Translations under genes and position numbers: made by a program
Shown here: piece after piece, positions 1 through 5,211 of the stretch
Position numbering within the stretch: position 1 is the first letter of the stretch
How the letters are laid out: each line of letters starts with the position of its first letter
The notes under the pieces: model-generated
Told to the model about the DNA's origin: nothing
Databases searched by the model: none
Seen by the model: only the letters and a program-made list of their open reading frames with translations
Assembly (NCBI GenBank): GCA_017532155.1
Contig: JAFXJP010000031.1
Span: 1-36,761 of the forward strand
Reading direction: 5' to 3'
Source: Clostridia bacterium
GTDB lineage: Bacteria > Bacillota > Clostridia > Christensenellales > Aristaeellaceae
DNA: 36,761 nucleotides

Positions 1-1
1 C

Positions 2-184
2 ATAAATGGAGGAAAGGTTAAGGAGAGAAATCAGGAATCTGAAACAGGAGGCTCTGGGCCATGGTTGTATCTGTATTGGAAAGGCGATGGCGGCAAATAT
101 CAAGAATTCTCTTTTTTGACTGTAAACGAAAAAAATTCTTTCGAAAAGTTTTGTGAGGAACTTGTAACAACGCAAACGGAATAG
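2..184 (+). CDS. Unknown protein, C-terminal fragment
   Basis: An open frame runs from the window edge to a TAG at 182-184, giving 60 residues with no in-frame ATG, so the start probably lies outside the window. The peptide is polar, with a Gly-rich patch, an aromatic stretch (PWLYLYWKGDGG) and a charged end with FEKFCEEL. I do not recognise the family. The DNA is visibly richer in A/T than everything after position 340, and the frame stops about 25 bases before the broken spoIVB sequence. It may therefore belong to inserted DNA rather than to the resident chromosome. Moderate confidence that it is coding, because the frame is short. Confidence 0.4.
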   Translation: MNGGKVKERNQESETGGSGPWLYLYWKGDGGKYQEFSFLTVNEKNSFEKFCEELVTTQTE

Positions 185-222
185 TCAGAAATTGTTGTCC
201 CTAATGACAATCACTCGTGTCT
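185..222. other. Junction between foreign-looking DNA and spoIVB
   Basis: The spoIVB reading frame can be followed leftwards only to about position 217. Before that there is an in-frame TGA (205-207) and no spoIVB-like sequence in any frame. Just left of the break is a small inverted repeat, TTGTC and GACAA around CCTAAT (about 195-210). The join falls where family members encode GMSGSP; here the codon before SGSP is GTG rather than ATG. This could be a site-specific attachment junction, a chromosomal rearrangement, or a misassembly. The sequence alone cannot separate these. Confidence 0.45.
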
Positions 223-336
223 GGCAGTCCGATCATTCAGGATGGGAAGCTGATCGGTGCAGTGACCCATGTGCTGGTCAATGATCCGGCCAAGGGATAT
301 GGAATTTTTATTGAGAATATGCTGGAGGCGGGATAA
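208..336 (+). pseudogene. spoIVB: spoIVB 3' fragment (SpoIVB serine peptidase)
   Basis: The frame ending at TAA 334-336 reads [20 protein letters not shown] followed by [18 protein letters not shown]. This matches the C-terminus of the SpoIVB (S55) peptidase, the mother-cell signal that triggers pro-sigma-K processing late in sporulation. The catalytic serine lies in the SGSP motif and is retained. The whole PDZ domain and the rest of the protease domain are absent, because the frame hits a stop at 205-207. Full-length family members have roughly 400 residues; about 40 remain. An intrinsic terminator follows at once, as expected for the natural 3' end. Whether the gene is dead, interrupted by an excisable element, or broken by assembly cannot be told here. 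Confidence 0.8.
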
Positions 337-340
337 CAGC

Positions 341-367
341 GGACAGGTAAAATGCCCTGTCCTTTTT
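341..367 (+). terminator. Intrinsic terminator after spoIVB
   Basis: A 7-bp perfect stem GGACAGG/CCTGTCC (341-347 with 356-362) has an 8-base loop and is followed by five T. It ends the spoIVB transcript 5 bases after the stop. Confidence 0.75.
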
Positions 368-424: not shown

Positions 425-835
425 ATGAAGATTGCAGTAACGTATCAGAATGGTCAAATTTTTCAGCATTTTGGACACACGGCGCAATTTAAGCTGTATG
501 AGGTAGAGGACGGCAAGATCGTCTATTCGGAAGTGATTGATACCATGGGCAGCGGTCACGGCGCGCTGGCGGGCATGCTGGTGGCGCTGGGGGTGAACGC
601 TGTTATTTGCGGCGGTATTGGCGGCGGCGCGCAGACGGCGCTCAAGGCTTTTGGCATTACGATTTACGGCGGCGTGCAGGGCAGCGCGGATGCGGCGGCT
701 GCGGCGCTGGCGGCGGGCGAGCTTCAGTATGATCCCAACGCCCGGTGCGATCATCATGACCATGAGCATGACGAGGGTCATGTGTGCGGCGAGCATGGAT
801 GCGGCGGCAATTGCGGCGGCTGTGGACATCATTGA
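425..835 (+). CDS. NifX/NifB-like Fe-Mo cluster-binding protein with His/Cys tail
   Basis: This 136-residue protein belongs to the dinitrogenase iron-molybdenum cofactor family (NifX/NifY/NifB C-terminal fold). Residues 1-105 show the family pattern: MKIAVTYQNGQIFQHFGHT at the start, then a Gly-rich segment GVNAVICGGIGGGAQTALK and GITIYGGVQG. The last 30 residues form a striking His/Cys-rich tail (CDHHDHEHDEGHVCGEHGCG) that should bind metal. AGGAGG lies 8 bases before the ATG. No nitrogenase genes are nearby. In anaerobes such stand-alone proteins are common, and their role is thought to be iron-sulfur or molybdenum cluster handling. The downstream cyclase-family gene starts one base after this stop, so the two are probably translated together. 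Confidence 0.85.
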   Translation: MKIAVTYQNGQIFQHFGHTAQFKLYEVEDGKIVYSEVIDTMGSGHGALAGMLVALGVNAVICGGIGGGAQTALKAFGITIYGGVQGSADAAAAALAAGELQYDPNARCDHHDHEHDEGHVCGEHGCGGNCGGCGHH

Positions 836-2328: not shown

Positions 2329-3006
2329 ATGGAGCACGTGCTTGAACAGCTTCAGGGGTTCAACGTTTATTCTGTGACCTTCCGCATACTGCTGGCGACA
2401 ATTGTCGGCGGCTGCATTGGCTCTGAGCGCGGAAAACATGGGCGCGCTGCGGGCTTGCGCACGCATATTCTGGTGTGCGTGGGCGCAGCGATGACCACGT
2501 TGATCGGCTTGTATGCCACGAATTGCCTGGGTTCCATCGGTGATCCGATGCGCATGGGAGCGCAGGTGGTTTCTGGCATGGGCTTTCTGGGCGCGGGAAC
2601 GATCATGGTGCGCAACCGGTCGCATGTAACGGGATTGACCACTGCTGCTGGGCTGTGGGCGACAGCCTGTCTTGGGCTGGCGATAGGAGCGGGTTTTTAC
2701 ATGGCGGTAATCCCTGCTTTTTTGGTGATTATGGCAACAATCACCGTGTTTATTCATTTGGAGCGTGCAACCAAGCACCGGGATCGCGGCGCATTTTATA
2801 TAGAAATGAATGATGTGCGCAGTGCGCGTGCGTTCTATGAAGAACTGGCGGTGTATATTTCTGAAATTGAAGTGGTGCCGCCGCGCAGCGGTATGGCGGA
2901 GCATGTAGGGCTTGAGCTGGCGGTGGAGACCGCCGAAAACAGCCGCCGGGTGATGCGGCGCGTGAAGGAATGCAAGGATGTTGTGATTGCTATACCGATC
3001 CATTAA
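2329..3006 (+). CDS. MgtC/SapB family membrane protein
   Basis: This 225-residue protein has the MgtC/SapB membrane domain in residues 10-140: FRILLATIVGGCIGSERG, GRAAGLRTHILVCVGAAMT, GMGFLGAGTIMVR and the GLTTAAGLWATACLGLAIGAG segment. A soluble C-terminal domain of about 80 residues follows. MgtC in pathogens modulates the F-type ATP synthase and supports growth in low magnesium; the role of firmicute homologues is less clear and may involve ion or pH homeostasis. AGGAGCTGGGC gives a good ribosome binding site for the ATG. It is co-oriented with the membrane XRE gene 15 bases upstream and ends at a strong bidirectional terminator. Confidence 0.88.
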   Translation: MEHVLEQLQGFNVYSVTFRILLATIVGGCIGSERGKHGRAAGLRTHILVCVGAAMTTLIGLYATNCLGSIGDPMRMGAQVVSGMGFLGAGTIMVRNRSHVTGLTTAAGLWATACLGLAIGAGFYMAVIPAFLVIMATITVFIHLERATKHRDRGAFYIEMNDVRSARAFYEELAVYISEIEVVPPRSGMAEHVGLELAVETAENSRRVMRRVKECKDVVIAIPIH

Positions 3007-3050: not shown

Positions 3051-3806
3051 TTACAGTTCCAGGTCAATTTCCAGTCCGTAGTGATCGCTGGGGTACTTGC
3101 CGTCGAAGGTGTCGCGGATGATCTTCTGATCAACAGGCGCGATCTGATCGTTGATAAAGCAGAAATCAATGTGTGCGCCTGGATGCTTTTCAGGATGATA
3201 GCCGTGGAAGGTGGCCGATAGGTCATTGCGTGTGGCGGCGTTGACGTCGGTAAAATGTTTGCACAGGATGGCGTAGCCCGGCGCGGTGGGGCGCAGATTG
3301 AAATCACCCGTCAGGAAGGTGGGAAGATCGGAAATCACCTTGCTGCGCGCGGCGATCAATTCGCCGCTTTTGATCTGCCCGTCGTCGCCGAAGCCGTAGT
3401 GCGTGTTCATGAAGGTGAAGCGCCTGCCGCTTGCCTTTTCCTCAAGGATCACCCACTCGCAGATGCGGTGGCAGTGGTAGAGTTCGTCCCAGCCGCGGGA
3501 TTCCACTTCCGGCGTGTCCGACAGCCAGAAATAGCCCTTGTCCAGGCAGGTGAATTTCTCCTTTTTCCACAGGATGGGTGCGGATTCGGGCGATTCGGTG
3601 GAGCGGTATTTGTTGAAAATTTCGTAGTCTTTGCCAAAGTATTTTTCGATATGCGCTTCCCAGGCAGGACGATATTCCTGAAGGCCGATCACATCGGGAT
3701 CAATCGGCGCGATGGCGGCGTGCAGACGCGGCGCGCGCTCTGAGATGGCGTGGCCGTCTTTGTCATCGCAGCAGCGGATATTAAAACTGACAACTTTCAA
3801 ATGCAT
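3051..3806 (-). CDS. Endonuclease/exonuclease/phosphatase (EEP) family protein
   Basis: This 251-residue protein is a full-length EEP-fold hydrolase, related to DNase I, sphingomyelinase and inositol phosphatases. Active-site landmarks are in order: SFNIR (Asn9), GLQEY (Glu44), NTHYGFG, LTGDFNLRP (metal-binding Asp and Asn), HIDFCFI, and SDHYGLEIDL with the terminal Asp-His pair. No signal peptide is seen, so it acts in the cytoplasm. The start MHLKVVSFNIR fits the family, and AAGGAAGG precedes it. It is divergently arranged from the PPOX-family gene and has its own strong promoter. The substrate cannot be read from sequence; firmicute relatives are usually annotated only as endonuclease/exonuclease/phosphatase. 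Confidence 0.88.
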   Translation of the reverse strand: MHLKVVSFNIRCCDDKDGHAISERAPRLHAAIAPIDPDVIGLQEYRPAWEAHIEKYFGKDYEIFNKYRSTESPESAPILWKKEKFTCLDKGYFWLSDTPEVESRGWDELYHCHRICEWVILEEKASGRRFTFMNTHYGFGDDGQIKSGELIAARSKVISDLPTFLTGDFNLRPTAPGYAILCKHFTDVNAATRNDLSATFHGYHPEKHPGAHIDFCFINDQIAPVDQKIIRDTFDGKYPSDHYGLEIDLEL

Positions 3807-4410: not shown

Positions 4411-5211
4411 TTATCTGGCGCGCAGCTCCCAGAAGGCTACTGCGCTGGCAGCGGCGACATTGAGCGAATCCACGCCGTTATACATGGGAATTTTGACGGT
4501 AAAATCGCTCTCCGCAATGGTCGTTTGCGACAGGCCGTCGCCCTCTGTGCCCAGGATCACGCACAGCTTTTCGGCATGCTGCAGGGCGGGATCGTCAATG
4601 GAAATGGCGCGGTCGTCCAGCGCCAGTGCCGCCGTCTGAAAGCCCATTTCACGAAGCGTTTTCATATCGTCCAGATACGTCCACGGCACCTGAAACACCG
4701 TGCCCATGCTCACACGACAGGCGCGGCGATATAAGGGATCACAGCAGGCGGGGGTGAGCAGCACGGCCTCCATGCCAAGCGCGGCGGCCGAGCGGAAAAT
4801 CGCGCCGATGTTGGTGGGATTGACCACGTTTTCAAGCAGCGCAATGCGCCTTTTGTCTGCACAGATTTCTTGTGCGGCGGGCAGGGGCTTGCGCTTCATG
4901 GCGCAGAGCATGGCGCGGGTGAGCGGAAAGCCGGTCAGGTGGTTGAGCACCTGCTTGTCAGATGTGAAAACGGGGATATCGCCGCAGCGGTCGATGACAG
5001 CAGCGTAATCGTCGTGCAGGTGGCCGCTTTCCGCCAGAATGGAGACGGGCTCAAAGCCCGCCTTCAGCGCGCAAGCAATCACCTTGGGGCTTTCGGCGAT
5101 GAACAGGCTTTTTTGCGCGTCCTGGCGAGACAGAAGCTGGGCTTCGGTCAACCGCGCGTATACATCCAGCCGCGGATCGTTAAAGTCGGTAATTTCGATG
5201 AATTGGGGCAT
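4411..5211 (-). CDS. TrmH/SpoU family RNA 2'-O-methyltransferase
   Basis: In this 266-residue protein the N-terminal ~100 residues form the substrate-binding domain. The SPOUT domain with its three motifs follows: NPTNIGAIFRSAAALG (motif 1, with the catalytic Arg), CVILGTEGDGL (motif 2) and IPMYNGVDSLNVAAASAVAF (motif 3). It uses S-adenosylmethionine to methylate a ribose 2'-OH in rRNA or tRNA. The exact target base is not evident; similar firmicute proteins are annotated as 23S rRNA methylases. It is a single-gene unit with a consensus promoter that shares its -35 region with the divergent transporter operon. AAGGAG precedes the ATG. Confidence 0.9.
   Translation of the reverse strand: MPQFIEITDFNDPRLDVYARLTEAQLLSRQDAQKSLFIAESPKVIACALKAGFEPVSILAESGHLHDDYAAVIDRCGDIPVFTSDKQVLNHLTGFPLTRAMLCAMKRKPLPAAQEICADKRRIALLENVVNPTNIGAIFRSAAALGMEAVLLTPACCDPLYRRACRVSMGTVFQVPWTYLDDMKTLREMGFQTAALALDDRAISIDDPALQHAEKLCVILGTEGDGLSQTTIAESDFTVKIPMYNGVDSLNVAAASAVAFWELRAR

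What the first reader, a model, noticed from the sequence alone, without database searches (positions are those of the whole stretch)
185..336. spoIVB is broken exactly at its catalytic serine by unrelated DNA
What is seen: the SpoIVB C-terminus is intact from SGSPIIQ to its stop and natural terminator, but nothing SpoIVB-like precedes it, and the upstream DNA is AT-richer with a different gene end. Known: sporulation genes such as sigK and spsM are split by prophage-like elements (skin, SPbeta) in some Bacillota and rejoined during sporulation. Inference: this may be the right edge of such an element, inserted in the most conserved codons of spoIVB. SpoIVB acts just before sigma-K, so a switchable break there would be a new control point. 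A dead gene in a non-sporulating strain, or a misassembly, are the simpler options.
Basis: partly seen in the sequence, partly recalled or inferred. Interest (0 to 1): 0.75.

Follow-up and report, generated by a model that had tools for sequence, protein, structure and literature searches.

The report
Mobile gene cassettes parked in spoIVB
The stray end of a spore gene is the displaced leftover from a row of small mobile gene cassettes that insert exactly at that gene's active-site codon and each bring a new end that keeps the gene whole, an unfamiliar way for gut bacteria to swap genes.

Summary
Window base 1 is a contig edge. The same genome has an uninterrupted spoIVB on contig C16, followed by a cargo gene, a second partial spoIVB 3' end and the start of a second cassette. 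The window opens inside the end of that second cassette; about 311 bp are missing between the contigs. So spoIVB is not broken here: window 220-336 is its displaced 3' end.

A 27-bp element end (193-219) precedes partial 3' ends in 105 genome stretches. Where a full spoIVB was in view it came first, 39 of 39. Cassettes are short with varied cargo; one occurs in genomes whose SpoIVB N-parts are 39% identical.

Larger elements with this end carry three tandem large serine recombinases. An att-blind search gave two hits, both beside the end, both in one genus. In four trio genomes spoIVB itself is cut, with inverted-repeat ends around TG.

Best reading: serine-recombinase elements at spoIVB plus integron-like arrays of gene-restoring cassettes. 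How cassettes move is inferred.

The parts
2..184 (+). 3' end of the cargo gene of the second cassette (its 192-aa homologue in L119 has no Pfam match); cut by the contig edge
   Evidence: Window 1-200 is 96% identical to L119 612-811 and L117 4476-4675; shorter stretches at the edges of L138, L079, L080, L089 and L131 match at 90-96%; homologue without Pfam family
193..219 (+). Right end of the cassette (P arm, 27 bp); crossover dinucleotide TG at 218-219
   Evidence: Conserved motif in the hits; mean information 1.47 bits per position against 0.22 for the 33 bases upstream (partly selected by the search pattern); scores over 5 bits before 19 of 28 partial copies not selected by the pattern
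220..336 (+). Displaced 3' end of spoIVB (SGSPIIQDG... to stop), last copy of the array
   Evidence: TIGR02860 positions 361-397, E 3.3e-18; frame and stop
341..367 (+). Terminator-like inverted repeat and T-run after the spoIVB stop; similar ones follow the other two copies on C16
   Evidence: Read by eye from the sequence
425..835 (+). First gene after the array: dinitrogenase iron-molybdenum cofactor (NifX/NifB-like) family protein
   Evidence: PF02579, E 1.4e-19

Best explanation
spoIVB is the insertion site of a family of mobile elements in gut Clostridia. Elements with three tandem large serine recombinases have ends P and P' (inverted repeats around TG) that join the codons of spoIVB just before SGSP; in the genomes seen, spoIVB is cut there (shown from sequence; that the two ends on different contigs belong to one element is inferred). 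Alongside them live short cassettes in which no recombinase was noticed. Each has a copy of the spoIVB 3' end (B') at its left, one to a few cargo genes, and the P arm at its right (shown). The recombinase trio most likely moves cassettes in trans by swapping right half-sites at TG, helped by homologous exchange inside B' (inferred). The window is the far right junction of a two-cassette array: end of cassette 2, P arm, last spoIVB 3' end.
For: Uninterrupted spoIVB, cassette 1 (Acyl_transf_3 gene) and a P|B' junction on C16. C16 and C12 ends match the two parts of one cassette known complete elsewhere, gap about 311 bp. 105 stretches with the junction; 107 of 119 pattern matches in loci L057-L168 read into a SpoIVB-like C-terminus (a few sites fetched twice). 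Where a full copy is present it is first in 39 of 39 stretches. Right end of cassette 2 in eight genomes: 96.2% mean identity over the 60 bp before TG, 74.7% in the 60 bp after, 26.9% beyond the stop (28 pairs). L100/L126: 93.7% over 873 bp, from 37 bp before the first junction to about 5 bp after the second; SpoIVB N-parts 87 of 228 identical. Trios beside the right end in L166 (=L167), L168, L208, L201, and one gene away in L200; identity 42-73% within a triplet position, 28-30% between positions. Att-blind profile search of 391 genomes: 2 hits at E<=1e-120, same genus, both with the right end plus spoIVB 3' end about 80 bp on. Cut spoIVB with a shared left end in 4 of 4 trio genomes examined; P against P' 16-17 of 25 identical, shuffle means about 7.
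Against: Only 2 of the 53 array-bearing genomes searched have a clear orthologue of recombinase 3 (65-72%; 27 of 53 have some serine recombinase at E<=1e-40), so most arrays have no visible mover. Within one cassette the first 60 bp of B' are only 82-87% identical while the cargo is about 92-99%, and in L100/L126 identity jumps in mid-B', so not all exchange is at TG. Serine integrases are described as not recombining pairings other than attP x attB without a helper factor (PMC3783163, start of abstract seen in the listing), so P|B' x B|B' would be unusual. No excised circle was seen. GC3 of the 3' part does not differ from the 5' part (lower in 18 of 39 arrays). The window's 3' end is not clearly closer to relatives than the other copies. 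One partial copy (L150 5940) has no P arm at all.
Confidence: 0.8

Rival explanations
1. Cassettes spread by homologous recombination through the ~117-bp spoIVB 3' end they carry; the P arm is only a relic of the recombinase-bearing elements.
For: B' arms have a different history from cargo; in L100/L126 the identity jump lies inside B'. Only 2 of 53 array genomes searched have a trio orthologue.
Against: The P arm stays conserved across unrelated cargo. The same cassette changes neighbours at TG, being next to the B arm in L117 and the P arm in L119 and G000.
Confidence: 0.3
2. One reading: an element interrupts spoIVB in this genome and leaves during sporulation, as skin leaves sigK.
For: Element edge at conserved codons; serine recombinases in related elements; cut spoIVB in G365, G347, G577, G696 in genomes with intact SpoIVA.
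Against: spoIVB is uninterrupted on C16 in this genome and the array joins C16 to C12.
Confidence: 0.05
3. Misassembly or chimera at the contig edge.
For: The junction is 219 bp from a contig end in a fragmented assembly.
Against: The same junction type recurs in 105 stretches, including records titled as strains: Fusibacillus kribbianus YH-rum2234, Faecalicatena contorta ET55 and Anaerostipes sp. 992a, the last in a 1.5-Mb contig. The end of the window's cassette recurs before TG in seven other records.
Confidence: 0.02
4. Dead gene: decay of spoIVB in a non-sporulating lineage.
For: A lone 3' fragment is what decay can leave.
Against: Uninterrupted spoIVB and intact spoIVA in the same genome; the fragment keeps frame, stop and terminator.
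Confidence: 0.02

Closest known systems
gin element of Bacillus cereus in gerE (PMC5595907: abstract, outline and passages seen)
   Same: Non-phage element with three serine recombinase genes splitting a sporulation gene; the recombinase-bearing spoIVB elements resemble this.
   Different: Another gene. In gin girA and girB form an operon with girC apart, whereas here the three are adjacent. No arrays of gene-restoring cassettes are described in the passages seen. Developmental excision is untested here.
Streptococcus ICEs with a triplet of serine integrases (PMC4701971: passages and section 23 read)
   Same: Three serine integrases in one orientation near the target gene, clustering by position in the triplet, 2-8 bp repeats, sometimes CDSs between triplet and target.
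   Different: Targets mutT, traG, hsdM, described as disrupted. Here the target is spoIVB, there are small cassettes in which no recombinase was noticed, and these keep the gene whole. A conjugation module was not searched for here.
Staphylococcal / Enterococcus cassette chromosome (PMC6222049: passages seen)
   Same: Large serine recombinases, insertion in the 3' part of a conserved gene, variable cargo.
   Different: Two recombinases (ccrAB), rlmH target, ECC elements of 21-78 kb. Here a trio, a site just before the SGSP codons (38 codons from the stop in the window copy), about 1-kb cassettes in tandem.
Integrons (PMC8618304: passages seen)
   Same: Tandem arrays of short one- or two-gene cassettes at one fixed site; movement in trans is the likely common feature.
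   Different: Integrons use a tyrosine recombinase, attI and attC. Here the site lies inside a protein gene, each cassette carries a copy of the gene's end, and serine recombinases are implicated.
skin / SPbeta / yin intervening elements (PMC10747680 passages; PMC4191935 and PMC5025042 search listing only)
   Same: Serine-recombinase elements in sporulation genes.
   Different: Described as prophage or prophage-like, one element per gene, gene broken until excision.

Membership tests
Serine-integrase-triplet elements (ICE type) | Three adjacent large serine recombinases, same orientation, near the target gene | tested here: met
   L166, L168, L208, L201, L200, L218, L219; Pfam scan only of the six proteins of L166 and L168: PF00239+PF07508+PF13408 in each, one PF13408 hit under its cut-off. 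Not shown for the short cassettes.
Serine-integrase-triplet elements (ICE type) | Recombinases cluster by position in the triplet | tested here: met
   Five elements: 42-73% within a position; within L168 28-30% between positions; L168's three are at most 36% identical to 14 other serine recombinases of array genomes. No tree was built.
Serine-integrase-triplet elements (ICE type) | Conjugation module (relaxase, coupling protein, VirB4) | not tested
gin/skin-type sporulation intervening element | Element splits a sporulation gene | tested here: met
   Met for G365, G347, G577, G696, with left and right pieces on different contigs; not met for the window's genome, whose spoIVB is uninterrupted
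gin/skin-type sporulation intervening element | Excision during sporulation rejoins the gene | not testable with these tools
   No reads or expression data
Integron | Tandem array of short gene cassettes at one site | tested here: met
   89 intervals, median 1172 bp; 39 of 39 stretches with a full spoIVB start with it
Integron | IntI tyrosine recombinase | not tested
   No IntI search was made; no phage-integrase family among the 25 of 126 Pfam families shown for 148 cargo proteins
Integron | attC sites | tested here: inconclusive
   Junctions carry a 27-bp arm plus spoIVB coding DNA; compared with attC only by eye against a recalled consensus
SCC / cassette chromosome | Insertion in rlmH | tested here: not met
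   Target is spoIVB
SCC / cassette chromosome | ccr-type recombinases | not tested
   Large serine recombinases are present; no comparison with ccr was made

The most novel reading that the evidence does not exclude
A serine-recombinase counterpart of the integron: non-autonomous gene cassettes that carry a spare 3' end of a key sporulation gene insert at its active-site codon, regenerate both the gene and the insertion site each time, and so build arrays that shuffle defence, toxin-antitoxin and metabolic genes among gut spore-formers while never costing the host its sporulation.
Probability: 0.5. Interest if true: 0.92.

Novelty: new variant of a known kind. Interest (0 to 1): 0.86.

Why it matters
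It would be a cassette-capture system outside the tyrosine-recombinase integron, present in many gut Clostridia, with a built-in way of sparing the host: every insertion swaps the C-terminus of SpoIVB (a key sporulation protease, recalled) without breaking it. It offers a catalogue of movable single-operon cargo, including Septu-like defence genes, Fic and RhuM families and sugar enzymes. It also makes two questions testable: can serine integrases work on sites that share one half, and is spoIVB another sporulation gene held open by an element and rejoined in development?

Tried and rejected
Broken gene, non-sporulator and misassembly were considered and rejected. Xer/dif-like, integron-attC-like, IS110-like and tyrosine-integrase readings of the 27-bp end were considered by eye only and set aside once serine recombinase trios appeared beside it.

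Negative or inconclusive results: a motif scan for recombinases over all loci did not even flag the trios, so its silence about cassettes counts for nothing; the GC3 test for a foreign 3' part; the test whether the window's 3' end is closest to relatives; no viral contig with the left end or with the second junction type; recombinase 3 as query found only its own contig among viral contigs; G000 itself has no trio orthologue at E<=1e-40, but its assembly is 82.5% complete. G141 has a left end and a cut spoIVB but no element genes recognised after it, probably a remnant. Of three plasmid-collection hits, two were looked at and look chromosomal. Of ten phage-collection hits nine were full spoIVB genes; only MT836038.1 has a partial copy, with a trio. 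A search for recombinase 3 in the plasmid collection found 8 records, none above 37%; in the phage collection MT836038.1 at 52%, the other seven rows shown (of 10 records) at 34% or less.

Not resolved: how the first B'-cargo-P cassette arose, since the recombinase-bearing elements end in P' on the left.

Parts of what I had: recombinase 3 was sought in 53 genomes reached by 55 handles (50 of the 105 stretches and 5 G genomes). 149 cargo proteins of at least 110 aa were selected and 148 scanned; one of 1454 aa was left out. Some intervals (96 and 161 bp) are artefacts of split hits.

Full report
1. The observation. Window 217-336 encodes the C-terminal end of SpoIVB with stop (E 3.3e-18), directly preceded by unrelated, AT-richer DNA in which another frame ends at 184.

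2. The rest of the locus. The same genome has an uninterrupted spoIVB on C16:68568-69467 (376 bits). After its stop come a terminator-like repeat, an acyltransferase gene (PF01757) and a second partial spoIVB 3' end, 162 bp from the end of C16. The partial copies on C16 and C12 share 84% over 139 bp, including 27 bp before the Ser codon that are not spoIVB. Window 1-200 is 96% identical to the right part of a cassette that is complete in two other genomes (L119, L117), and the last 300 bp of C16 are 92% identical to the left part of the same cassette. C16 and C12 therefore flank one cassette, with about 311 bp missing. Five more records match its right end at their contig edges, which probably explains why the assembly broke there. 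The array reads: spoIVB, cassette 1, junction, cassette 2, junction, displaced 3' end, NifX-like gene. Synteny fits in part: homologues of window 3051-3806 and 4411-5211 (79% and 82% identical) lie downstream of spoIVB in same-genus genome G007, though 11-17 kb away, and the window genes at 425-835, 1720-2313 and 2329-3006 had no match there.

3. It is a family. In 60 relatives several genomes have a full spoIVB plus partial copies. A strict-motif search found 3 of 297 genomes of the order (own genome included), with no control hits. A looser pattern, including the SGSP codons, found 105 stretches in a collection of one genome for each of 84,980 species. By tblastn 104 of 105 hold SpoIVB-like pieces; 39 hold a full copy, which is first in all 39, followed by 1, 2, 3 or 4 partial copies in 29, 7, 2 and 1. 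Thirty-six of the 39 full copies lie in an open frame of at least 272 aa; no such frame was found for three. Of 28 partial copies not selected by the pattern, 19 score over 5 bits for the 27-bp arm, against -18.9 for the 99.9th percentile of 21,000 randomly drawn 27-mers (the highest of which, 46.1, must be a true site); the other nine score from 0.7 down to -67.5. The 89 intervals between pieces have a median of 1172 bp.

4. The unit is mobile. L100 and L126 share one cassette: 93.7% over 873 bp, from 37 bp before the first junction, in conserved codons, to about 5 bp after the second, while their SpoIVB N-parts share 87 of 228 residues. Cassette 2 of the window's genome is next to the B arm in L117 and the P arm in L119 and G000; the SpoIVB N-parts of L117 and G000 share 107 of 273 residues. 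For eight genomes with the right end of this cassette, mean pairwise identity is 96.2% in the 60 bp before TG, 74.7% in the 60 bp after, and 26.9% beyond the spoIVB stop. Against a purely TG-centred exchange, the B' part of shared cassettes diverges more than the cargo, and in L100/L126 the jump lies inside B'.

5. Cargo. Of 148 proteins, the most frequent Pfam families were AraC-type and other helix-turn-helix regulators, Fic, GDPD and EamA, with GH127, RhuM, PARG-type and others in two proteins each. PADLOC models, including PtuA (2 members) and candidate systems, also hit. G011 carries an ATPase-HNH pair, which I read as Septu-like. No recombinase was noticed in cassettes, but only 25 of 126 matching Pfam families were displayed.

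6. The recombinases. Three IMG/VR contigs with the right end (the only three found) carry three tandem large serine recombinases just before it; L166 and L167 are the same there (recombinase 3 identical). A human-faeces record, MT836038.1, has another trio ending about 45 bp before the crossover. Two of 53 array-bearing genomes searched have orthologues at 65-72%: contig G365:C16 ends 5 bp after the right end, and in G347:C55 an ATPase gene lies between trio and end. Identity is 42-73% within a triplet position. A profile of recombinase 3, which contains no att sequence, found two genomes in 391 at E<=1e-120, both of one genus and so not independent; both have the right end and a spoIVB 3' end about 80 bp downstream. 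In many genomes that search scored only three candidates.

7. The other end. In G365, G347, G577 and G696 the only long spoIVB piece stops at model position 361-364 and continues into a shared left end, ATG|NNN[AG]TGNG[AT]TATAATAGGGACAACA. Read from the outside, left and right ends agree at 16-17 of 25 positions (shuffle means about 7, maxima 15-17 in 2000 shuffles each). This is what a serine-integrase attP with a central TG would look like (inference). A ParA-like frame (G577) and a ParB-like frame (G365) lie near left ends. SpoIVA is intact in 6 of 6 genomes tested, these four among them. In these genomes spoIVB looks truly split, so a gin-like switch is possible but untested. Left and right ends are on different contigs in all four. 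A left-end search found one further genome, G141, in 347 of the order.

8. Mechanism. Call the spoIVB halves B and B' and the element halves P and P'. The recombinase-bearing element would do B|B' x P|P' to B|P' + P|B' and break the gene. A cassette with P|B' would do B|B' x P|B' to B|B' + P|B', so gene and site are both regenerated. That explains why the full copy is first, why the copies face one way, and why arrays grow. That the trio catalyses this second reaction is inference, and goes against the usual pairing rule of serine integrases (PMC3783163, start of abstract in the listing); homologous exchange in B' is a real alternative or partner.

9. What is known. Triplets of serine integrases on Streptococcus ICEs cluster by position, leave 2-8 bp repeats and disrupt mutT, traG or hsdM (PMC4701971, section 23 read). 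The gin element splits gerE with three serine recombinases and is excised in sporulation (PMC5595907, abstract and passages). SCC/ECC elements use ccrAB in rlmH (PMC6222049, passages). Integrons use a tyrosine recombinase with attI and attC (PMC8618304, passages). Seven searches of the open-licence library listed no paper whose title or abstract start describes spoIVB as an insertion site or serine-recombinase cassette arrays. Those listings are partial and no preprints are held.

10. Verdict. The fragment is real and is the right-hand junction of a mobile-cassette array, not a broken gene. The recombinase-bearing elements are a new variant of a known kind. The gene-restoring cassette arrays are the surprising part.

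Noticed in passing
L039, L041, L042, L047, L242 (G004, G003, G002, G022): A second junction type: partial spoIVB 3' ends starting about 15 codons later (before THV), preceded by GGTATCAT or close to it plus 6 bp, behind different cargo; a full spoIVB lies upstream in L039, L041, L042 and L047. A separate element family seems to use another site in the same gene; its recombinase was not found.
   Followed up: partly
L048 (G053:C47) 2966: A partial 3' end after a full spoIVB whose preceding bases fit neither junction type well.
   Followed up: no
L237 5274 (G141:C13:25249): spoIVB cut at the same codon with the left-end motif, but no element genes recognised after it; a 94% complete genome with intact spoIVA, perhaps a remnant.
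   Followed up: partly
L168 5177-5437; G347:C55 14556-14789: A small DUF6870 protein precedes the recombinase trio in two elements; worth testing as an accessory or directionality factor.
   Followed up: no
G347:C55 19991-21274: An AAA_14/DUF4143 ATPase gene sits between the recombinase trio and the right end, opposite in orientation.
   Followed up: no
L166, L167, L168; MT836038.1: Records filed as viral or phage hold these elements and spoIVB ends; I recognised no phage genes among their frames, though only five non-recombinase frames (all of L168) were scanned with Pfam.
   Followed up: partly
L117, L119, L005 after the spoIVB copies: Terminator-like repeat plus TATAAT-like box right after the spoIVB stop is shared along with the cassette, as if each cassette brings its own insulator and promoter (read by eye).
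   Followed up: no
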